Assembly (NCBI GenBank): GCA_013824915.1
Contig: PNOQ01000051.1
Location: 1-37,082 of the forward strand
Length of the DNA: 37,082 bases
Direction of reading: 5' to 3'
Origin: Nanoarchaeum sp.
GTDB taxonomy: Archaea > Nanobdellota > Nanobdellia > SCGC-AAA011-G17 > PNOQ01
The notes under the pieces are model-generated. The model saw only the letters and a list, made by a program, of their open reading frames with translations. It did not search any database and was not told the origin of the DNA. The number at the start of each line of letters is the position of its first letter. The stretch's first letter is position 1. Positions 1 to 37,082 of the stretch are shown here, in pieces. The translations under genes and the position numbers were made by a program.

Positions 1-367
1 CAGTTATTTCTTTTCCATCAAGAAATTCTTGATCATAGTCTTTCATGTTATCTTGATATTTTTTTGCTAACTCTCTTTGTTTTTCGGTTGTATACTGCGC
101 GTTATCTAACATATAAACAAACGAATTTGAACTATTTGCTGTTAAATCATGATGTCTTTCGAGATGGGCTTTAGAAGTGATGTATATTGCTCTTGTATCT
201 AACCCTTTAGAATCCATTGCCATTAAAAAACTTGGTTGAGTTCTATCAAATATTTCTATACTTCTTGCTATATCTTCTTGAGTTAATAACGGATGTGGTA
301 AAAATAAACAAATCCTACCTTCATGTTCAGTATATGCTCCCAATGTTTCCCAAAATTGTTTTTCCAT
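1..367 (-). CDS. Hypothetical protein, 3' end outside window, apparent frameshift at start
   Basis: This is the last gene of the glycan locus visible here; it runs off the left edge. The coding frame is open from base 1 to about 356 and reads WETLGAYTEHEGRICLFLPH onward, with ordinary composition and no membrane segment. I do not recognise the family. An ATG at 367 overlaps the neuA stop (TAATG) and follows a good ribosome site (AAAGGAGAG), but its frame stops after 28 codons. One more A in the run of four after ATGG would join it to the long frame. The only other start in the long frame is a TTG at 344 with no clear Shine-Dalgarno sequence. So this is either a real or assembly frameshift, or a TTG-started gene. 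Context suggests a sugar-modifying or transfer step, but nothing in the sequence proves that. Confidence 0.55.
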   Translation of the reverse strand, partial: MEKQFWETLGAYTEHEGRICLFLPHPLLTQEDIARSIEIFDRTQPSFLMAMDSKGLDTRAIYITSKAHLERHHDLTANSSNSFVYMLDNAQYTTEKQRELAKKYQDNMKDYDQEFLDGKEIT

Positions 368-1119
368 TATCTCTCCTTTATTTCAAAATCTAATTTTATT
401 TTATTATTTTTTAATAAGTATTCTGCAAAATCAAAATCTGCAGGCGAGTCTATATTCACTAATCTTTCGTTCGGTAAAATTAAGGCTCCGCATTTTTTAC
501 CATATCTATTGTTTTCTTTAACTAATGTATTGTACAATATAGCATAAATCGCTCCATTTAACCAATAATATTTGCCTGGCAAAAGTTGTCTAACATAATA
601 TCTGTCTGATTCTAATATTTTGTTGATCATTCCTGTCTCTTTTACAACAGATTCTAATTCACCATTTATAACTTTTTTAATTCTATATGGATGAAAATGG
701 CCGGGCGTTTCAGATACGGATACAACAGAAGAATAACCACCTGATTTTAATAATGTTATAGATTCATCTATATCTTTACTTAATCTGAACGGGCAAGTAC
801 ATTGAGTTAAAATTACAACATCAGGTTTATAATTCTCTTTTTTTTCTAATTCTTCTAAAACATGTTTCAATGCTTCTTCTGCTCTGCTGTTATCTTGTGC
901 TAATTCAGATGGTCGCATCATTACTTCTGCGCCATATTTTTTAGAAATTTCTGCGATTTCATTATCGTCAGTTGAAACTATAGTTCTAGTTACTAATTTT
1001 GAGTTCAAAGAACAGGCTATTGCGTATGTAACAAGTGGTTTACCACCAAGTTCTTTCAAATTTTTTCTTATTACTCCTTTAGACCCACCCCTTGCAGGGA
1101 TTATAGACAATACATTCAT
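367..1119 (-). CDS. neuA: Acylneuraminate cytidylyltransferase (CMP-nonulosonate synthetase), copy 2
   Basis: It activates a nonulosonic acid (sialic or legionaminic type) with CTP to give a CMP-sugar in the cytoplasm. The N-terminal nucleotide-binding signature IIPARGGSKG begins at residue 6 and is typical of the family. IVSTDD and QCTCPFR-like segments follow, and the 250-aa length fits. The track starts 33 nt further upstream at 1152, but I prefer the ATG at 1119. It places the signature at the usual distance from the N-terminus, and a TATA-like TTTATAAA lies about 25 nt before it. The gene follows a GT-B transferase by 40 nt. A 93-base stretch is identical to part of the other cytidylyltransferase at 6205-6909, although the rest is clearly diverged. 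Which nonulosonate it activates cannot be told from sequence. Confidence 0.88.
   Translation of the reverse strand: MNVLSIIPARGGSKGVIRKNLKELGGKPLVTYAIACSLNSKLVTRTIVSTDDNEIAEISKKYGAEVMMRPSELAQDNSRAEEALKHVLEELEKKENYKPDVVILTQCTCPFRLSKDIDESITLLKSGGYSSVVSVSETPGHFHPYRIKKVINGELESVVKETGMINKILESDRYYVRQLLPGKYYWLNGAIYAILYNTLVKENNRYGKKCGALILPNERLVNIDSPADFDFAEYLLKNNKIKLDFEIKER
890..982. repeat. 93-bp perfect repeat shared with 6674-6766, copy A
   Basis: Inside the second cytidylyltransferase gene. It is the same strand and identical over 93 bases to copy B, with mismatches immediately outside on both sides. It encodes DNEIAEISKKYGAEVMMRPS and flanking residues in both proteins. Confidence 0.95.
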
Positions 1120-1140
1120 GATTCGAATAATAAAAAACCA

Positions 1141-1148
1141 TTTATAAA
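1141..1148 (-). promoter_or_regulatory. TATA box for neuA copy 2
   Basis: TTTATAAA centred about 25 nt upstream of the ATG at 1119. It lies inside the upstream extension of the track ORF, supporting the shorter start and an internal promoter. Confidence 0.5.
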
Positions 1149-1159
1149 ACATATGAATC

Positions 1160-2215
1160 TTAATTCTTTAAGTCTTGATTAATCAGATTTGCTGTGTATT
1201 TCACACCATCTAATGTACCATATTTTCTCATAATTTCTGTCTTATAATTTTGGATATTTTTTAGCTTGGATTTTGCTAATCTTAAATTTTCTTCAAACGA
1301 TAGTGAACTGTCATAAACTTGTACTAAATCTAATCTTTTAAATCTTTGAATATTGAAATATATCTCAAAGTCATCTCCTTTTTGATAAGGTAATATAACC
1401 AATGGCTTTTCCGCTAATAACGAATCTGAAACAGTTCCTAAACCTGCCCTAGTTATTACTGCTTCTATATTTTTGTTTGTTGTAATTTTTGGGTTATGTT
1501 CCCTTGAATCATATACTCTCAAACCTTTTATCTCGGGTAAATTATTTGTTAAATTTTCGATGCCAGAATTGTAAACATAAACCCCAGGGTTTAAATTTTC
1601 TAAGTTTTCTCCCATTTTTTCTACTATAAAAGGTACACCTATTTGTGGTTCTTTTAAGTCTAGTATATGTGGCTCTGAAACAAATAATCTTCTTTGTGAG
1701 TCTTCAATATGTTTTGATATCTTTATAGAATCCTTACCTAAACTATTATTGACTAAACCATTTAATATTGCTTCTCTTATGAACTCAGAAAATAATCCCA
1801 TGGTGACACAATAAGATCTTGGTAAACCTGAAGAGATTCTCTGATTCCTTCCTATTTCGAGTTGAATATCATATTCTCTTTGTAGTTCTTTTACTCTGTT
1901 TCTAAATTTTTTTTCTATCCTGTCGTAATTATCCAATATAAATCGAAGATTTTCTTGATAGTCTTCTCCTTTGTAGAATATTTCATTTAATAAATCTCCC
2001 AAGTCTTTGTCAAATATAACTAATTCTTGAACTTCTTTATATTTTTCTTCACTTAGAATTCCTCTTTGTTTTTTTTCATTTATTAGTGGACTTATTATTC
2101 TGTATGGTGAATTGCCTTCTAAAGTAATAATATGATTTAATTCTTTAGCAACATCTAATGATCTTAAAAATGGGCCGTGGCCATATGCAAAGTTGAGTAA
2201 AATTGCTTTTTCCAT
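1160..2215 (-). CDS. GT-B fold glycosyltransferase (MurG/GT28-like C-terminal domain)
   Basis: Probable cytoplasmic glycosyltransferase. The N-terminal half begins MEKAILLNFAYGHGPFL, with the glycine-rich loop expected near the acceptor site of GT-B enzymes. Near residue 260 the motif ITRAGLGTVSDSLLAEKPLV resembles the nucleotide-sugar-binding GxGT/S...E..P region of MurG and related GT28 enzymes. No signal peptide or membrane span is visible. It lies between neuC and the second CMP-sugar synthetase, so transfer of a nonulosonic acid or a neighbouring sugar is a reasonable inference, but donor and acceptor are unknown. The gene starts almost directly after the neuC stop, implying co-transcription. 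It could instead be a non-hydrolysing sugar-nucleotide enzyme with the same fold. Confidence 0.65.
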   Translation of the reverse strand: MEKAILLNFAYGHGPFLRSLDVAKELNHIITLEGNSPYRIISPLINEKKQRGILSEEKYKEVQELVIFDKDLGDLLNEIFYKGEDYQENLRFILDNYDRIEKKFRNRVKELQREYDIQLEIGRNQRISSGLPRSYCVTMGLFSEFIREAILNGLVNNSLGKDSIKISKHIEDSQRRLFVSEPHILDLKEPQIGVPFIVEKMGENLENLNPGVYVYNSGIENLTNNLPEIKGLRVYDSREHNPKITTNKNIEAVITRAGLGTVSDSLLAEKPLVILPYQKGDDFEIYFNIQRFKRLDLVQVYDSSLSFEENLRLAKSKLKNIQNYKTEIMRKYGTLDGVKYTANLINQDLKN

Positions 2216-2216
2216 T

Positions 2217-3368
2217 TTAGTAAGAAATCTTTTTTTGTACTATGTTTTTTAATTCTATTTTTGATAAAATGTCTGCAATTTTTTTTCCAGAATCACCAGT
2301 TCCATATAAATACTCACATTCTAATTTTCCTTTGCTTAAACATTTTAAAATTGCTTCTTTTATTTCTTCTTTATTATGATTTACATCTATGACATTCTTT
2401 CCACGTTCTCTATCTTTTTGTCTTGTTCCAACATTTATTACTGGTGTTCCAAAAACATGAGATTCTCTTATTCCACTACTAGAATTACCTATTAAACAAT
2501 CGCAATGAGCAAGTAATTTTATATATGTAGCAAAGGGTAAATTTTTGAATTTTTTTATCACTACACTTTTTTCTTTTGTTTTATAACCATGTTCAAGTAT
2601 TGCTTGTACCATATCTGCTGAACCTGCGTCAGGATTAGGATATAATAACACTGTTTGTATGCCTGTTTCTTGTATAGCTTCTAATGTGTTATACATTTGT
2701 TCATATGATGATTCAAATTCTGTTGTAACTGGATGTTGTGCAACTAACAAGAATGGCTTTTTTGAATCAAACTTTTCTAAATATTTTATTTCTTTGATGT
2801 CTTCTTTTTTGCCTAAATCAAATTTTAAGATTTCATCCATTGATGGGCAACCAACATTATAAACATGTGAAGGATTTTCTCCCATTTTTATTATTCTCTT
2901 TGCGCTTTGTTCTGTTGATGGAAAGTGAATATGTGCAAATTTGGTTATAGCATGTCTAATACTTTCATCTATGGTGCCACTAACTTCACCACCTTGTATA
3001 TGTGCTAAAGGAATATTCATTAATGATGCTGAAATCGCAACCGATAGCATTTCAAATCTGTCTCCTACAATTAAAACAATATCTGGTTTTAGATTATCTA
3101 AAAGAGTTGTTATTTCTAATATACCTAGACCAACAGATTTAGTCATAGAATGCGGATCTTCTCCTTCTACAACCATTCGTGCTATAGCATTTATTTCAAA
3201 GCCATCTTTTTTTATTATTTCAATTGTTTTTCCATAATCTCCAAGTAAATGTGCTGCTGCGACAACTAATTGTAATTCTAATTCTGGATGATTCTTAATA
3301 GCACTAAGAACACTTTTCAATTTGGTATAGTCCGATCTATATCCACTTACGACGCATATTTTTCTGAT
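2217..3368 (-). CDS. neuC: UDP-GlcNAc 2-epimerase, hydrolysing (NeuC/LegG family), non-standard start codon
   Basis: NeuC-type enzymes hydrolyse and epimerise UDP-GlcNAc to ManNAc, or the bacillosamine-derived equivalent for legionaminic acid. This supplies the substrate for NeuB. Family segments seen are VGDRFEMLS, HIQGGEVSGTIDESIRHA, VAQHPVTTEF and GNSSSGIRESHVFGTPVINVG. The track starts at a TTG (3320), but the conserved N-terminus IRKICVVSGYRSDYTK lies upstream in the same open frame. No ATG, GTG or TTG precedes it. An ATC at 3368 takes the place where ATG is expected, with GGGGTGAT ending 5 nt before it, which is a near-perfect Shine-Dalgarno sequence. From that ATC the protein has 383 residues, close to the usual family length. 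The 5' end overlaps the 3' end of neuB by 22 nt. Start-codon mutation, an assembly error and genuine AUC initiation are all possible. Confidence 0.85.
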   Translation of the reverse strand: MRKICVVSGYRSDYTKLKSVLSAIKNHPELELQLVVAAAHLLGDYGKTIEIIKKDGFEINAIARMVVEGEDPHSMTKSVGLGILEITTLLDNLKPDIVLIVGDRFEMLSVAISASLMNIPLAHIQGGEVSGTIDESIRHAITKFAHIHFPSTEQSAKRIIKMGENPSHVYNVGCPSMDEILKFDLGKKEDIKEIKYLEKFDSKKPFLLVAQHPVTTEFESSYEQMYNTLEAIQETGIQTVLLYPNPDAGSADMVQAILEHGYKTKEKSVVIKKFKNLPFATYIKLLAHCDCLIGNSSSGIRESHVFGTPVINVGTRQKDRERGKNVIDVNHNKEEIKEAILKCLSKGKLECEYLYGTGDSGKKIADILSKIELKNIVQKKISY

Positions 3369-4417
3369 GTTGTATCACCCCATTTCAATTGGGTATCTTT
3401 TTCTATATCTCTTGTTGCATATCTACCTATAACTTCGTCTAAACTTTCTGCTTTTATCTCTCCAGTTCCGGGTCTTTTTACCCACAGATTATCCATACTA
3501 AATAATTCTCCACGAGGGATATATGCTGTTGAAACTACACAAGAATATGCAAAGTCTATAGTTACTTGTTCTTCAGGTAGTATTTCCTTTTTTCCGCCTA
3601 ATGCTTCATGTATTGCTCTACTACCTTTGATTAATTCTTCTAATTCAGTAGGATCTACCGAAATTGGTACGTCCGGACCAGGCCATCTTCTATCTGAAGT
3701 AAAATGTTTTTCTAATATTGATGCACCAAATGGAATTGCACCTAAACAAGTATAAATTCCTAAAGAATGATCACTTAAACCTAAAACTGCGTTTGGAAAT
3801 TTTTCCCGCATATCATTTAAAGCTCCAAGTCTAACTTTATTATACGGAGTAGGGTACATAGAAGTACAATGTAATAATGCATATTGTATATCATTTTCTT
3901 CTAAGATTTTCACACTTTTTGAAACATTATCTAAACTATTCATCCCTGTACTCAAGATTATTGGTTTTTTGAAAGACGCAATATGTTTTATTAACGGATA
4001 ACTATTACACTCTCCAGAACCAATTTTGAATGCAGAAACACCCATTTCGTGCAATCTATCTGCTGCAGCTCGTGAAAAAGGAGTACATAAATAAATCATG
4101 CCTAAACTTTCAACTAATCTTTTTGTTTCAATTTCTTCTTCTTGTGTTAATGCGCATCTTTCCATTATATCATAAATGGATTCTTTTGCATTACCTGGGA
4201 TAACTTTTCTTGCTTCAGGTATCATTTCATCTTCTACTACATGTGATTGAAATTTAACACATTCTGCACCTACATGATAAGCATCTAAAATCATCCTTTT
4301 TGCTTTAGCAATATTTCCTTCGTGGTTTATTCCTATTTCTGCTATTACTAACGGAGAAAATTCTTCACCAATTTTTCTATCACCTATTTTAATGAAAGGT
4401 TTTACCAAGCAGTCCAA
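3347..4417 (-). CDS. neuB: N-acetylneuraminate/legionaminate synthase
   Basis: It condenses ManNAc (or a 2,4-diacetamido sugar) with phosphoenolpyruvate to form a nine-carbon nonulosonic acid. The N-terminal TIM-barrel motif LVIAEIGINHEGNIAKAKRM and CVKFQSH are diagnostic. The active-site region continues with GLSDHSLG and ILEKHFTSDRRWPGPD. The last ~60 residues (WVKRPGTGEIKAESLDEVIG onward) form the SAF antifreeze-like domain that closes the active site in NeuB enzymes. The 356-aa length is normal. The start overlaps the SDR gene by 16 nt and the end overlaps neuC, so the three are probably translated together. Sequence alone does not separate sialic acid synthase from legionaminic acid synthase. 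Confidence 0.93.
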   Translation of the reverse strand: MDCLVKPFIKIGDRKIGEEFSPLVIAEIGINHEGNIAKAKRMILDAYHVGAECVKFQSHVVEDEMIPEARKVIPGNAKESIYDIMERCALTQEEEIETKRLVESLGMIYLCTPFSRAAADRLHEMGVSAFKIGSGECNSYPLIKHIASFKKPIILSTGMNSLDNVSKSVKILEENDIQYALLHCTSMYPTPYNKVRLGALNDMREKFPNAVLGLSDHSLGIYTCLGAIPFGASILEKHFTSDRRWPGPDVPISVDPTELEELIKGSRAIHEALGGKKEILPEEQVTIDFAYSCVVSTAYIPRGELFSMDNLWVKRPGTGEIKAESLDEVIGRYATRDIEKDTQLKWGDTTSEKYAS

Positions 4418-5238
4418 CCTCCATCAACCACCAAATTTGCCCCAGTCATATATCTAGACGCATCTGAAGCTAAAAATAAAATTGCTCCGTTATAATCTGT
4501 TTTTTCAGCCATTCTTCCTAGAGGAGTACGTTTACAGTATTCTTCTACAAAAGTTGGGTCTTGATTTGGATCAGAAACTCCACCAGGAGTTAAAGTGTTT
4601 ACTCTTATTCCGTGTGGTCCAAGTAATGTTGCTAAGTATCTTGTGAAGTTTAATACTCCCGATTTTGTTGTTGCATATCCTGCAGGTTTAACAAATCCTT
4701 TTCCAGTTTCTGGATGTCTCATTTCTCTGTAAACTCTTTGATCAGGAGAAACTAAACCATATGTCGATGCAATATTTATTATTGATCCACTTTTTTCAGG
4801 TTTCATTAATTTTGCCGCTTCTTGACTACATAAAAACATACCTGTCAAATCTACATCTAAACTTCTTTGCCATAATTCTAAGGGATAATCTTCAAAATCT
4901 ACAAAGTTGCTTCCTTTACTTTCTGCTGGGCAATTAAATGCTGCATTATTAATTAGAACATCTAATCTTCCGAAATGATTATTTATTTTTTCAAACATAC
5001 TTTTTACTTCTTCTTTTTTTGAAATATCTGTTTTGATACCTAACATATCATTACAATATGCCGTCTCTAATATTATTGCTGTATCTTGACATCTTTCTTC
5101 GTTTAAATCTGAAATTATTACGTTAGCACCAGCTCTTGCTAAAGTACTAGAATATTGTGTTCCTAACAATCCAGTAGCACCAGTAATTAATACTACTTTT
5201 CCTTTCATACTAAAAATGTCTTCTAATGATCTGCTCAT
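4402..5238 (-). CDS. Short-chain dehydrogenase/reductase, nonulosonate cluster
   Basis: NAD(P)-dependent SDR oxidoreductase. The Rossmann loop TGATGLLG is at residues 19-26 and NNAA at about 97-100. The catalytic triad is S158, Y188 and K192 (YATTK). The C-terminal GGWTAW is usual for classical SDRs, and 278 aa is a normal length. The segment around residues 165-185 (QRVYREMRHPETGKGFVKP) is an insertion before the catalytic tyrosine. Related SDRs (the PtmA type) occur beside neuB, neuC and a cytidylyltransferase in bacterial legionaminic-acid clusters, and the order here resembles that arrangement. The substrate is not known from sequence. It overlaps the upstream oxidoreductase by 4 nt and neuB by 16 nt. 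Confidence 0.85.
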   Translation of the reverse strand: MSRSLEDIFSMKGKVVLITGATGLLGTQYSSTLARAGANVIISDLNEERCQDTAIILETAYCNDMLGIKTDISKKEEVKSMFEKINNHFGRLDVLINNAAFNCPAESKGSNFVDFEDYPLELWQRSLDVDLTGMFLCSQEAAKLMKPEKSGSIINIASTYGLVSPDQRVYREMRHPETGKGFVKPAGYATTKSGVLNFTRYLATLLGPHGIRVNTLTPGGVSDPNQDPTFVEEYCKRTPLGRMAEKTDYNGAILFLASDASRYMTGANLVVDGGWTAW

Positions 5239-6221
5239 TTTATTTCTATTCTCCTACCCTCTTTGGAAGATTGTTTTATTGCATCAACAACTTTCATAAC
5301 ATGAATAACTTCTTCTTTTTGCACCTTTGGAATTTCTTTTCCATTTATAGAGTTTATGAAATTCAATAACTCTGCTTGATACATTTCATTTCTTTGATAT
5401 CTAGGTTTTATATCGGTTAATCTGCCAGCTCCTGAATAAATGTCTAAGGTGTTAGTAGCATAATTCCATATTATTTTACCGTTTTCTCCAGTAATTTCAC
5501 AAGTTCTTTTTAATGGTCTTTGTATACAATCCAAATGTAACTCGATTAATGCGCCATCTTTGGATCTCATTAAAGCTGATGTAGTATCTTCAACATCCAT
5601 TTCTAAGCTACTTAATTTTCTAGAATCTGCCATCACTGATTCTATACCATTAAATAACCAATTTGCATAATCTATTTCATGTATTAATGTTAAAGTTATT
5701 CCTCCACCTAGGTCTTTTCTGGCTGCATAACCTAATCTATAATCTTCACCTGGGTGCCAGTCTGGTAAATATTGTCCAACTTCTATTCTTCCAAATAAAG
5801 GTTTACCGATAATTCCTCTATCTAATGTTTCTTTTATTTTAATTAGATGTGGATGATATCTAAAATTAAAAGCTAAAAATCCGACTTTATCATTTTTTTC
5901 TAATATAGAATACAATGCTTCAACACCGTCTAAGTTGTGTGAGATTGGTTTTTCTATAAACAAATGACATCCTTCTTGTGCTGCCCTTAATGAGATTGGC
6001 ATGTGTAAACTTGTAGGATTTGTGACAAAAACTGTGTCAGGTTTTTCTTTTAATGCATCTTCTAAATTTGTATATGATTTTATACCATACTTTTGATCTA
6101 ATTCTTCTAAATTAGAATTATTTGTTCGATAAGCTATTATTTCATCATTAGGATATAATGCTCTTATATTCTGTAAATGTCTTTGTCCTATTGATCCTAA
6201 ACCACTAATTAGATGTTTCAT
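5235..6221 (-). CDS. Gfo/Idh/MocA family oxidoreductase
   Basis: NAD(P)-dependent sugar oxidoreductase. The N-terminal Rossmann motif GLGSIG is at residues 7-12, NPTSLH at about 68-73, and the family signature FIEKPIS at residues 88-94 carries the cofactor and active-site lysine. The C-terminal half has DLGGGITLTLIHEIDYANWL, the sheet region with the conserved HEID-type segment. Length is 328 aa, as usual. It lies between a CMP-sugar synthetase (17-nt overlap) and the SDR (4-nt overlap). In bacterial legionaminic-acid loci a gene next to ptmA and the cytidylyltransferase (ptmF) plays an upstream sugar-precursor role. I suggest an equivalent role here as inference only. Confidence 0.87.
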   Translation of the reverse strand: MKHLISGLGSIGQRHLQNIRALYPNDEIIAYRTNNSNLEELDQKYGIKSYTNLEDALKEKPDTVFVTNPTSLHMPISLRAAQEGCHLFIEKPISHNLDGVEALYSILEKNDKVGFLAFNFRYHPHLIKIKETLDRGIIGKPLFGRIEVGQYLPDWHPGEDYRLGYAARKDLGGGITLTLIHEIDYANWLFNGIESVMADSRKLSSLEMDVEDTTSALMRSKDGALIELHLDCIQRPLKRTCEITGENGKIIWNYATNTLDIYSGAGRLTDIKPRYQRNEMYQAELLNFINSINGKEIPKVQKEEVIHVMKVVDAIKQSSKEGRRIEIK

Positions 6222-6909
6222 TTTTCATCATAAACTCCACTAATTTTATATCTTCTTTAGTATCTACATCTAGAAATTTATCACTGCTTAAGATAAATGG
6301 TAATATATTATCTCCGTATAAATCTCCTTTTTTCATTATTGTATCGTATTTTAGAACATAGATGTATCCATTTTGCCAGTAAACTTTATCTAATAACTGT
6401 CTTGGTGTTCCAGCAGTAAAGCTGTTTGCTTCTATAAATGGTTTAAGATAATTATCTCTCAATTTCCACATTTTGTATGGAGTTTGAAAAGGTTCTATTA
6501 CTGCTCTTACAGAATCTGCTTTTTTATCTTGTATTAATAACTGGATTGCAGAATCAACTTCTTCAGGTTTTCTTAACGGGAAAGTTGGTTCCAATAAAAC
6601 TATAATATCTGGTTGATAGTTCTCTTTTTTTAATTCTTCCAAAACATGTTTTAATACTGGGAAAGTTGGTGTTTTATCTTGTGCTAATTCAGATGGTCGC
6701 ATCATTACTTCTGCGCCATATTTTTTAGAAATTTCTGCGATTTCATTATCGTCAGTTGAAACTATAATTCTTTCTATTAATTCACTCTTTTTGGCAACAT
6801 CTATTGAATAATAAATCAATGGTTTTCCATTGACAGAAACTATATTCTTTCTTGGGATTCCTTTAGATCCGCCCCTTGCCGGTATTATTGCGAGAACTTT
6901 CATTTTCAT
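6205..6909 (-). CDS. Acylneuraminate cytidylyltransferase (CMP-nonulosonate synthetase), copy 1
   Basis: CMP-sugar synthetase of the NeuA/LegF type. AIIPARGGSKGIPRKN near residue 7 binds CTP, LLEPTFPLR follows, and WQNGYIYVLK and LDVDTKEDI complete the family pattern. Length is 234 aa. Two start codons are possible, at 6909 and 6903 (MKMK). The coding sequence begins inside the preceding capsule-type gene, overlapping it by 47 nt. It shares 93 identical nucleotides (6674-6766) with the second cytidylyltransferase at 367-1119. With two such genes in one operon, either two nonulosonic acids are activated or one gene has taken a different nucleotide-sugar role. Gene order with the Gfo/Idh protein, SDR, neuB and neuC resembles bacterial legionaminic-acid loci. 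Confidence 0.88.
   Translation of the reverse strand: MKMKVLAIIPARGGSKGIPRKNIVSVNGKPLIYYSIDVAKKSELIERIIVSTDDNEIAEISKKYGAEVMMRPSELAQDKTPTFPVLKHVLEELKKENYQPDIIVLLEPTFPLRKPEEVDSAIQLLIQDKKADSVRAVIEPFQTPYKMWKLRDNYLKPFIEANSFTAGTPRQLLDKVYWQNGYIYVLKYDTIMKKGDLYGDNILPFILSSDKFLDVDTKEDIKLVEFMMKNETSN
6674..6766. repeat. 93-bp perfect repeat shared with 890-982, copy B
   Basis: Inside the first cytidylyltransferase gene, at constant offset 5784 from copy A and in the same orientation. Synonymous sites are also identical, unlike the rest of the two genes. That points to gene conversion or recombination rather than protein-level constraint. Confidence 0.95.
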
Positions 6910-34669: not shown

Positions 34670-35113
34670 ATGAAAAAGAGAGGTATAAGCCCATTAATTG
34701 CTACTGTCATTCTTGTTGGATTTACAATTGTGATGAGTATTTTTGTTTTAGTCGGTATGAGTAATATAGGTCAAAGAACTATTGCTGACCAAGATAAGAG
34801 AATAGCTAGTTCAGTTGTTTTAGATTTTGGAGTTAAATATTCTCCTGCGCAATATTGTACAGGATTAGCTGGGGAAGTAATATGTAATACAGGTAAAGAT
34901 TATTATTGTGTTTTAATTGAGAATAAAGAAAGTCAAAAAGTGAATTATAGAATTATTACTAAAGGGAGTTTAGGTAGTGAAGTTTGTTCGCCAGATAAAG
35001 TAGAATTAAATGGTTATGAATCTAAAGTGTTTGCTATAGGTTATGATCCTGTAAATGTTGGAGTTGCTCCTTTGACTGCAGATGTTGAAGCAATTTTATA
35101 TTTAGAAAACTAA
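34670..35113 (+). CDS. Archaeal type IV pilin-like protein with class III signal
   Basis: The N-terminus MKKRGISPLIATVILVGFTI is the archaeal prepilin signature. A short basic leader ending in G precedes the conserved ISPLIATVIL segment, cut by a prepilin peptidase and followed by a hydrophobic helix that packs the pilus core. The remaining ~115 residues form a small, beta-rich globular domain with cysteines at positions consistent with one or two disulfides (YCTGLAGEVICNTG, YYCVL, EVCSPD). Length is 147 aa, usual for minor pilins. A TATA box is centred about 25 nt before the ATG. It could be a pilin, a minor pilin or an archaellin-like subunit; I favour pilin. Confidence 0.8.
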   Translation: MKKRGISPLIATVILVGFTIVMSIFVLVGMSNIGQRTIADQDKRIASSVVLDFGVKYSPAQYCTGLAGEVICNTGKDYYCVLIENKESQKVNYRIITKGSLGSEVCSPDKVELNGYESKVFAIGYDPVNVGVAPLTADVEAILYLEN

Positions 35114-35943
35114 ATTTTTACTGAAATCTTTCCTTGTTTGAGAACTCTTACTTTTCCACCAGATTCGGAAACTACTACTGCTATTGAATTTGTTTCTTTT
35201 GTTAAAGCTGCACAGGCTCTGTGTTTTGTACCAAATCCATCTGGGAATTCTAATCCGGATGAATCAATATCGATGTAAGTTCCTGCACTTAATATTCTTC
35301 CTTCTGTGTCTATAACAAATACTCCATCTAATTGTGCGAAGTTTTTTACTGTTTCTTTTAAATCAGGATCAGTAATTCTTGGTTTTTCAGTTAAATTATG
35401 GAATGGATTGATAATCATCTGTTTTAGATGTCTGTTAATTTCTTTTGGATCACCAATTATGAATCCGGTACCTATTTTTCTTCCTTCTCTGCCTTCTTCT
35501 CCGATTTCTTTAGCTAGATTTATTACAGCTTCAACTATTTCTGAACTGATATATTCAGATAATTTTTGTTGACCTATCTTGAAGAAGATTTCATCAACAT
35601 CAAATATGAATAATAATCCTTCATAACCTGCGCCAATGTTTGGGTCTTGAACACAGACTATTTTTTCTCCTTTTTCTACATAACCTTTGTTTACTGCTTC
35701 AACTAAAACTGTTTTTATTGGAATTATTGAACCAAATTCTAGTTTTTTTGTTTTAGCTATATATTCTATCTTTTTGAATCGATTAGGACTAACTTGTTTG
35801 AATATTGAAACTTTGATATCTATAGAATCACTATCTTCATACTTTTCGTGAGGAATTTTTTCTACTGTAACGATGCTGCTTGCATTGATATCTTTTGCAA
35901 TTTTTGTTGCTGCAAAGCCTATTGTTTCTTCTATTTTATTCAT
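35110..35943 (-). CDS. dacZ: Diadenylate cyclase (DacZ-like, DAC domain)
   Basis: It probably makes the second messenger c-di-AMP from two ATP in the cytoplasm. The N-terminal ~180 residues form the PK-like domain seen in archaeal DacZ proteins (KIGTGFIIGD near 157-165). The DAC domain follows, with LDGVFVIDTEGRILSAGTYI at about 205-224 and GTKHRACAALTKETNSIAVV at 238-257. The usual motifs are DGA and RHR; here the first reads DGV and the second KHR. Neither change clearly destroys activity, but both are worth testing. Length from the ATG at 35943 is 277 aa. The track start at 35949 is a TTG. The 3' end overlaps the pilin gene by 4 nt in convergent orientation. Confidence 0.85.
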   Translation of the reverse strand: MNKIEETIGFAATKIAKDINASSIVTVEKIPHEKYEDSDSIDIKVSIFKQVSPNRFKKIEYIAKTKKLEFGSIIPIKTVLVEAVNKGYVEKGEKIVCVQDPNIGAGYEGLLFIFDVDEIFFKIGQQKLSEYISSEIVEAVINLAKEIGEEGREGRKIGTGFIIGDPKEINRHLKQMIINPFHNLTEKPRITDPDLKETVKNFAQLDGVFVIDTEGRILSAGTYIDIDSSGLEFPDGFGTKHRACAALTKETNSIAVVVSESGGKVRVLKQGKISVKI

Positions 35944-36026
35944 TTTCAATCGAATCTAATAGTTTCTCATTAAAAAACTTTTTGGTGTGTTTTTATGACT
36001 ATTAATCAGTAGTAAGCCATCGAAAA

Positions 36027-36036
36027 CTTTATAAAG
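36027..36036 (+). promoter_or_regulatory. TATA box for the lytic transglycosylase gene
   Basis: CTTTATAAAG, the same decamer as at the aglB/tRNA-Ser promoter. The predicted leader is about 20 nt and carries the GGTGAT ribosome site. Confidence 0.5.
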
Positions 36037-36075
36037 GGTGGGCCTTTAACTGTTATAAATCGACGGTGATTAGAA

Positions 36076-36840
36076 ATGAATACAAACAAAATTTTAGTTG
36101 GATTAAGTACAATCTCTGCTTTAGCTATGTTATCTTACGGTCCTTTTACCGAGGATAAAAAGAGAAATGTTGTTGAACCAGAGTCTAAGTTAGAGAGAAC
36201 TATATCTGAATTTATTTCTAATGAAACTATTGAATCTCAAGTAAAATCTTTTGAAGTTTTAGTTGAAAATCCATTGTATAATGTTAGAGAAGGAGAAAGT
36301 TTAGAAAGTGTAGCTAGTTATTATGGTGTTAGGACTGAAAGTATACGAGATATTAATCCTGGTGTTGATGATTTGTATGCTGGTCAACTTATAAGAGTTC
36401 CAAATTTACAACCAATCGAAGTTAGATTCCCTAAACTATTAAAATATAGAAAAGATATCGAATGTGCTGCTGAAATTTATGGATTAGAGCCTAGATTAAT
36501 TTACTCAGTTTTACAACATGAAAGTAATGGTAATCCTAATGCTGTGTCTCCAAAAGGTGCTCGTGGTTTAGGCCAAATTATGCCTGCAACTGCTAGAGAT
36601 TATGGTGTTAAAAATCCAATGGATTTATTTAATCCGAAAATAAATATTTATACTACTAGTGAAATTTTAGCATACTTAACTGAAAAGTTTGGAGATACAG
36701 AACATGTATTGGCTGCATATAATGGTGGCGAAGGAAGAGTTGAAAAAGTTCTAGCTCGTGCAACTCATACCGATTGGACAACTTTATTGCCTAGTGAAAC
36801 TAGAAATTATATTCCTGCAGTTTTAGCTTATTATAATTAG
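36076..36840 (+). CDS. Secreted LysM plus lytic transglycosylase (SLT) protein
   Basis: In bacteria this family cuts peptidoglycan between MurNAc and GlcNAc. Residues 3-21 (TNKILVGLSTISALAMLSY) look like a signal peptide or anchor. A LysM carbohydrate-binding domain lies at 67-108 (LYNVREGESLESVASYYGVR ... IRVPN). The SLT domain runs from ~125, with HESNGNPNAVSPKGARGLGQ around the catalytic E149 and AYNGGEGRVEKV around 214-225. Length is 254 aa. The ATG has GGTGAT 5 nt upstream and a CTTTATAAAG TATA box 40 nt back. Since archaea lack murein, the target may be bacterial cells or another polysaccharide. It may derive from horizontal transfer. Confidence 0.87.
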   Translation: MNTNKILVGLSTISALAMLSYGPFTEDKKRNVVEPESKLERTISEFISNETIESQVKSFEVLVENPLYNVREGESLESVASYYGVRTESIRDINPGVDDLYAGQLIRVPNLQPIEVRFPKLLKYRKDIECAAEIYGLEPRLIYSVLQHESNGNPNAVSPKGARGLGQIMPATARDYGVKNPMDLFNPKINIYTTSEILAYLTEKFGDTEHVLAAYNGGEGRVEKVLARATHTDWTTLLPSETRNYIPAVLAYYN

Positions 36841-36874: not shown

Positions 36875-37082
36875 ATGAAAATTATGGTGATAATATTATT
36901 TTTATTAGTTTTACCTATTTGTTTTGCTAAGGAAGTTAATATTATTGAGACTTTTGAGAGTGAGAAAAATATTGGTGAAACAACTTACTACTATGCTGGT
37001 TCTAAGTTAATTGCAACTAAGAACAATGATAACATTAATTTTCAATATCAAGATAGATTAGGTTCGGATTTTGAATCGAATA
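36875..37082 (+). CDS. Rhs/YD-repeat-like secreted protein, 5' end only
   Basis: Only the first 69 codons are in the window. A signal peptide (MKIMVIILFLLVLPICFAKE) is followed by ETTYYYAGSKLIATKNNDNI and then NFQYQDRLGSDFE. The YYYAGxxLIA...Y...DxLGS pattern matches the repeat and core of Rhs/YD proteins, which in bacteria form shells around toxic C-terminal domains. Here only one repeat-like unit is seen. The ATG has a TATA box (TTTATATA) centred about 25 nt upstream, so transcription is leaderless. It follows the lytic transglycosylase gene by 35 nt in the same direction. The toxin-type reading is an inference because the C-terminus is off the window. Confidence 0.6.
   Translation, partial: MKIMVIILFLLVLPICFAKEVNIIETFESEKNIGETTYYYAGSKLIATKNNDNINFQYQDRLGSDFESN

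What the first reader, a model, noticed from the sequence alone, without database searches (positions are those of the whole stretch)
36076..36840. LysM-lytic transglycosylase in an organism without murein
The SLT catalytic glutamate and the LysM domain are intact, and the protein carries an export signal. Archaea do not make murein, so it most likely acts on bacterial walls (attack, entry into a host or nutrient release) or on a self-made polymer. It sits next to an Rhs-like gene and near a pilin, an arrangement consistent with interaction with other cells.
Basis: partly seen in the sequence, partly recalled or inferred. Interest (0 to 1): 0.65.

Follow-up and report, generated by a model that had tools for sequence, protein, structure and literature searches.

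The report
Archaeal enzyme for cutting bacterial walls
A tiny-genome archaeon that cannot build a bacterial cell wall carries an intact, apparently exported enzyme of the kind that cuts such walls; this is already a known kind of archaeal tool, but here it sits beside the first piece of a gene from a large, apparently unreported family of variable secreted toxin-like (Rhs) proteins.

Summary
Window 36076-36840 encodes a 254-aa protein with a short N-terminal signal, one LysM (aa 68-109) and a complete SLT/GH23 domain (aa 130-231; Pfam E 1e-27). E149 aligns with catalytic E478 of E. coli Slt70, and the AlphaFold model matches Slt/MltE structures. The contig is archaeal (order shared with a named Candidatus Woesearchaeota genome) and a syntenic copy exists in a second genome of the genus, so it is not contamination. 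The genome has no Mur ligase or penicillin-binding transpeptidase. Bacterial peptidoglycan is the most likely substrate; the purpose (attack, entry, feeding) is not shown. The kind is known: murein transglycosylases in Pace-/Woesearchaeota (2021, 2022) and archaeal peptidoglycan hydrolases that kill bacteria (2025). This is a new member, with an N-terminal LysM seen in two genomes of its order. The tree is too weak to date transfer from bacteria. The Rhs-like gene 34 bp downstream is real but cut by the contig end. It belongs to a multi-copy family: secreted, a conserved ~110-aa Rhs core, unrelated 200-270-aa C-termini, in 7 of 9 genomes of the archaeal family. I found no report of it in DPANN archaea; it is the more novel part.

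The parts
36027..36035 (+). TATA-like element CTTTATAAA, about 44 bp upstream of the start codon; conserved in the sister species
   Evidence: sequence and intergenic comparison with G001
36065..36070 (+). GGTGAT, archaeal-type Shine-Dalgarno, conserved in G001
   Evidence: sequence
36076..36840 (+). LysM-SLT lytic transglycosylase gene, 254 aa
36076..36141 (+). putative Sec-type signal, aa 1-22
   Evidence: hydropathy only; inferred
36277..36402 (+). LysM domain, aa 68-109
   Evidence: Pfam PF01476 E 1.2e-6;
36463..36768 (+). SLT (GH23 family 1) catalytic domain, aa 130-231
   Evidence: Pfam PF01464 E 9.8e-28
36520..36522 (+). codon of E149, catalytic glutamate equivalent to Slt70 E478
36875..37082 (+). 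N-terminus (signal peptide and start of the Rhs region) of a polymorphic Rhs-core gene, 69 aa, cut by the contig end
   Evidence: 54% identity over 70 aa to the full 377-aa G008 copy, E 3.8e-18; 89% DNA identity to two other copies in the same genome
35110..35949 (-). DacZ-like diadenylate cyclase, divergently transcribed neighbour
   Evidence: PF02457 E 3.7e-20; NF041371 E 1.8e-35, below its cut-off
34670..35113 (+). archaeal type IV pilin-like protein
   Evidence: TIGR02537 above cut-off

Best explanation
The gene encodes a secreted, modular peptidoglycan hydrolase. The Sec signal exports it, the LysM docks it on GlcNAc-rich glycan strands, and the SLT domain uses E149 to cut the MurNAc-beta-1,4-GlcNAc bond by the non-hydrolytic lytic-transglycosylase reaction, leaving 1,6-anhydro-MurNAc ends. 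As the producer has no murein, the target is the wall of bacteria in contact with this small-genome archaeon, most likely to breach or loosen the wall of a bacterial neighbour or host so that cell contents or secreted Rhs-type effectors can pass. Shown: domains, catalytic residues, fold, archaeal location, absence of the murein synthesis genes tested. Inferred: export, activity on murein, and use against living bacteria.
For: SLT and LysM domains. Catalytic E, S, Q and Y-N positions conserved against Slt70 and 44 bacterial enzymes. AlphaFold model mean pLDDT above 90 for aa 121-250; the listed PDB matches are all lytic transglycosylases (Slt, MltC, MltE, MltF and others). No Mur_ligase_M, transpeptidase or AnmK in the 90%-complete genome while most (AnmK: some) bacterial controls ring. 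Syntenic orthologue in a second genome with conserved TATA and GGTGAT motifs, so a resident, maintained archaeal gene (dN 0.37, dS 0.64). SLT domains in 49 of 83 genomes of the order. A polymorphic Rhs-family gene lies next to it here, and another lies one gene away from a different SLT gene in G008. Published archaeal peptidoglycan hydrolases kill bacteria (PMC12352652).
Against: No activity data. The signal peptide is short and was not tested with a predictor. GLMQ is GLGQ. LysM also binds chitin, and GH23 includes chitinases (general knowledge). The genome is about 90% complete, so absence of murein genes is not absolute. SLT-Rhs adjacency rests on two genomes and on SLT genes that do not appear orthologous.
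Confidence: 0.66

Rival explanations
1. Scavenging: the enzyme degrades wall debris of dead bacteria, giving sugars and peptides; no attack on living cells.
For: Small genome; peptidoglycan of dead bacteria has been suggested as an amino-acid source for Pacearchaeota (PMC11537232).
Against: AnmK, the kinase for the anhydro-MurNAc that this enzyme class releases, was not found. A wall-binding domain fits targeting as well as feeding.
Confidence: 0.17
2. The enzyme acts on a non-bacterial polymer: the archaeon's own surface glycans, chitin, or an archaeal host's coat.
For: LysM can bind chitin and pseudomurein (PMC12352652 citing Visweswaran 2012); the window holds a large sugar and glycosyltransferase cluster by reading of the ORFs, so surface glycans probably exist.
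Against: Active-site positions match murein-cutting enzymes; pseudomurein has a beta-1,3 linkage to talosaminuronic acid that this mechanism is not known to cut (general knowledge).
Confidence: 0.08
3. A catalytically weak or dead domain kept as a wall-binding adhesin that holds the archaeon on bacteria.
For: GLMQ changed to GLGQ in both species; faster protein divergence (52.5% identity) than the adjacent DacZ gene (97%).
Against: E149 and the other active-site positions are intact; dN/dS is about 0.6, so overall purifying selection; nearby surface proteins diverge about as fast (60%, 40%, 72% identity).
Confidence: 0.06
4. Contamination or mobile element: a bacterial or phage gene mis-assembled into an archaeal bin.
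For: Phage tail proteins carry similar SLT domains; the contig ends 242 bp downstream.
Against: The order Trm56-like, PKD, surface protein, pilin, DacZ, SLT is the same in an independent genome of the genus; archaeal TATA and Shine-Dalgarno motifs; no phage genes recognised in the window. The contig end is explained by the repeated Rhs N-terminus.
Confidence: 0.03

Closest known systems
Large murein-like transglycosylase proteins of Pacearchaeota and Woesearchaeota (fam00969; Castelle et al. 2021, PMC8204110)
   Same: SLT domain, extracellular, same archaeal groups, same proposed target; this genome also has one such protein (2052 aa, contig C12, SLT at aa 1904-1992)
   Different: The window protein is 254 aa with a LysM, not a 2000-3000-aa protein
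Modular archaeal peptidoglycan hydrolases (Strock et al. 2025, PMC12352652)
   Same: Catalytic domain plus wall-binding domain, patchy distribution, prominent in Nanoarchaeota
   Different: The family they studied in detail is haloarchaeal M23 peptidases with PG_binding_1; this one is a glycan-cleaving SLT with LysM
Bacterial LysM-containing lytic transglycosylases such as MltD and PDB 8rhe
   Same: SLT plus LysM, family 1 motifs
   Different: In 8rhe LysM lies C-terminal of SLT; here it is N-terminal; 36-51% identity to the nearest bacterial sequences, mostly over the SLT domain only
Classical RHS polymorphic toxins, including Methanosarcina acetivorans (Zhang et al. 2012, PMC3482391)
   Same: For the downstream gene family: conserved Rhs core followed by unrelated C-terminal domains, many copies
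   Different: Mostly a very short carrier (about 140 aa with a Sec-like signal, no long YD-repeat shell) and in most loci no gene on the same strand directly downstream for immunity

Membership tests
SLT / GH23 family 1 lytic transglycosylase | SLT domain above curated cut-off | tested here: met
   96.5 bits against cut-off 21.3
SLT / GH23 family 1 lytic transglycosylase | Motif I Glu-Ser with catalytic Glu, motif GLMQ, motif AxYNxG | tested here: met
   E149-S150, GLGQ (M changed to G), AAYNGG
SLT / GH23 family 1 lytic transglycosylase | Lysozyme-like fold of Slt/MltE | tested here: met
   AlphaFold model, Foldseek probability 1.00 to Slt, MltC, MltE, MltF
SLT / GH23 family 1 lytic transglycosylase | Release of 1,6-anhydro-MurNAc products from murein | not testable with these tools
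   needs an assay
[quoted passage not shown]
   SLT plus LysM
Modular archaeal peptidoglycan hydrolase | Producer lacks murein (so the enzyme does not target itself) | tested here: met
   no PF08245, no PF00905 in the genome; genome about 90% complete
Modular archaeal peptidoglycan hydrolase | Secretion signal | tested here: inconclusive
   hydropathy fits a short Sec signal; no predictor run
Modular archaeal peptidoglycan hydrolase | Kills or lyses bacteria | not testable with these tools
   needs an assay
fam00969 giant transglycosylase proteins | Protein of about 2000-3000 aa with SLT | tested here: not met
   254 aa; the genome's other SLT protein fits by length
RHS polymorphic toxin (downstream gene family) | Rhs-associated core followed by variable C-terminal domain | tested here: met
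   TIGR03696 above cut-off in intact copies; cores 59-92% identical, C-termini not alignable; not testable on the window's own truncated copy
RHS polymorphic toxin (downstream gene family) | C-terminus is a toxin domain | tested here: inconclusive
   One copy has Pre-toxin PT-TG above cut-off; lysozyme-like resemblance weak in two; one has an adhesive FlgD_ig domain
RHS polymorphic toxin (downstream gene family) | Immunity gene directly downstream | tested here: not met
   14 of 22 copies have a convergent downstream neighbour; some of the others precede housekeeping genes

The most novel reading that the evidence does not exclude
The archaeal family carries a multi-gene anti-bacterial or host-interaction arsenal: several secreted short Rhs-core proteins per genome with ever-changing C-terminal domains, some of them wall-lytic, used together with stand-alone peptidoglycan transglycosylases (LysM-SLT and giant SLT proteins) to open and exploit bacterial hosts. 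That would be a polymorphic effector system of DPANN archaea aimed at bacteria, working without classical downstream immunity genes because wall-directed domains cannot harm a producer without murein.
Probability: 0.25. Interest if true: 0.78.

Novelty: new member of a known kind. Interest (0 to 1): 0.45.

Why it matters
Which partners most DPANN archaea live on is an open question, and cultivated cases mostly have archaeal hosts. An intact wall-cutting enzyme kept under purifying selection in a genus with no detected murein synthesis points to bacteria as partners or prey and gives a directly testable protein. The neighbouring variable Rhs family, if confirmed as effectors, would make conflict or contact with other cells a central trait of this lineage.

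Tried and rejected
AlphaFold from the single sequence failed (pLDDT 42); a model with 44 bacterial relatives worked. Tree of 111 SLT domains: the window pairs only with its sister species (SH-aLRT 96) and otherwise sits unresolved among bacterial rows, but bacterial rows were picked by similarity to the window, and holding 25 archaeal rows together is not rejected and even scores better (p-AU 0.91), so no claim of recent transfer is made. Phage origin considered because 655 phage records match, several of the best as tape-measure proteins; rejected by synteny. Fast evolution as a sign of an arms race: SLT diverges faster than DacZ but not faster than all other surface genes nearby, so not used. 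Pfam and PDB searches of the Rhs C-termini gave mostly nothing.

Full report
What is there. The ORF at 36076-36840 (+) is real: 254 aa, ATG start, preceded by a TATA-like element and a GGTGAT Shine-Dalgarno that are both conserved in a sister species. It has a Pfam SLT domain (E 9.8e-28) and one LysM (E 1.2e-6). Aligned with E. coli Slt70, without gaps around the active-site Glu, E149 falls on E478, S158 on S487, Q167 on Q496 and Y215-N216 on Y552-N553. Across 44 bacterial relatives these positions are invariant; the notable departure is G166 in place of the Met of GLMQ, also in the sister species. The AlphaFold model made with these relatives is confident over the SLT domain and its best solved neighbours are all lytic transglycosylases. 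The N-terminus looks like a short Sec signal, but no predictor was available.

Whose gene it is. The genome (G000) has 828,909 bases and is about 90% complete. The window holds archaeal genes (pilin by TIGR02537, DacZ-like cyclase; AglB/STT3-like and Trm56-like genes by reading, not tested). In the second genome of the genus (G001) the order Trm56-like, PKD protein, surface protein, pilin, DacZ, SLT is the same. Contamination is therefore excluded for practical purposes. Protein identity to G001 is 52.5% for SLT, 97% for DacZ, 72% for the pilin, 60% and 40% for the two surface proteins.

No self-made murein. The genome has no Mur ligase middle domain, no penicillin-binding transpeptidase and no AnmK by these searches, whereas many bacterial control genomes ring. 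With about 10% of the genome missing this is strong, not absolute.

How it most likely works. Shown: intact catalytic machinery and wall-binding domain in an archaeon without the murein genes tested. Inferred from family knowledge: export, binding of GlcNAc-rich glycan by LysM, cleavage of MurNAc-GlcNAc bonds. The target would then be bacterial walls. Attack or entry is favoured over feeding because the standard kinase for the anhydro-sugar product was not found and because a toxin-like secreted gene lies next to it, but this step is inference.

Distribution and origin. SLT domains occur in 49 of 83 tested genomes of the order, often in proteins of about 2000 aa, of which this genome has one (2052 aa). 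LysM above the cut-off occurs in 13 of 103 genomes. The N-terminal LysM plus SLT arrangement was recognised only in this genus; in the one LysM-SLT ORF that I read from another family (G047) LysM is nested inside SLT, and match positions suggest the same in G036. Within the family three of nine genomes have a match to the window protein. A tree of SLT domains has too few columns: the window pairs with G001 only and one archaeal clade is not rejected. So a bacterial source is likely for the domain in general, but date and donor are unknown.

The neighbour. The gene starting 34 bp downstream (36875) is cut by the contig end after 69 aa. It matches the N-terminus of a complete 377-aa protein in G008 that lies one gene away from another SLT gene. 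That protein has an Rhs-associated core (TIGR03696 E 3.4e-20). The family has 4 to 10 matches in each of seven of nine genomes of the archaeal family (G000 has six including the window's). Within a genome the cores are 59-92% identical while the C-terminal 200-270 aa cannot be aligned with each other. This is the layout of polymorphic toxins. One copy (G007 C5) has a Pre-toxin PT-TG domain above cut-off; two C-termini weakly resemble a lysozyme-like domain; one has an adhesive-type domain. In 14 of 22 copies the next gene is convergent, so classical immunity genes are mostly missing; about half of these convergent neighbours look like small secreted or membrane proteins by eye, which is unexplained. 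Rhs cores occur in 43 of 371 sampled genomes of the phylum, sometimes as tandem short genes. Literature searches found no report of Rhs families in DPANN archaea in the library held; polymorphic toxins are described as rare in archaea, with Methanosarcina acetivorans as an RHS example (PMC3482391). The adjacency of SLT and Rhs is seen twice; given 6-9 Rhs copies per genome I estimate by hand about 2% and 5% chance per case, after the fact, so it is suggestive only.

Known or new. Castelle 2021 (PMC8204110) and Vigneron 2022 (PMC9723730) already report murein transglycosylases in these archaea and propose bacterial hosts or prey; Strock 2025 (PMC12352652) shows archaeal peptidoglycan hydrolases killing bacteria and notes their prominence in Nanoarchaeota. 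The window protein is a new member of that kind. The polymorphic Rhs family is the part that goes beyond it and deserves its own study.

Noticed in passing
window 36875-37082; full copies L029:2809-3942, L157:2442-3470, L158:2334-3485, L159:1752-3197 and others: Multi-copy secreted Rhs-core gene family with conserved core and unrelated C-terminal domains in one archaeal family; the repeated N-terminus probably explains why contig C7 ends inside it.
   Followed up: partly
L158, L159, L160, L164, L167, L173, L174: Convergent genes directly after Rhs copies often look like small secreted or membrane proteins; they could be unusual immunity or partner proteins.
   Followed up: no
L024:64-1350: In G001 the SLT ORF runs in frame into the middle of an alanyl-tRNA synthetase at the contig end (PF01411 E 5e-33); probably a chimeric assembly.
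   Followed up: partly
L177:2-973 (G047 C87); G036 C41: LysM nested inside the SLT domain, between the GLxQ and AYN motifs, in L177; match positions suggest the same arrangement in G036.
   Followed up: partly
L025:6939-13097: 2052-aa protein with a signal-like start and C-terminal SLT, next to a 656-aa protein with a pilin-like start: likely a member of the published giant transglycosylase family.
   Followed up: partly
window 35110-35949: DacZ-like diadenylate cyclase, 97% identical between two species whose neighbouring genes are only 40-72% identical.
   Followed up: no
window 367-6909: Cluster that reads like nonulosonic (sialic or legionaminic type) acid synthesis: NeuB-like, two CMP-sugar synthetase-like genes, epimerase and dehydrogenases. 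By eye only.
   Followed up: no
L176:6043-7230, L176:718-1923, L162:2593-3747: Rhs C-termini that by eye resemble SleB-type or NlpC/P60-type wall hydrolases; Pfam and PDB sequence searches gave no support above cut-off.
   Followed up: partly
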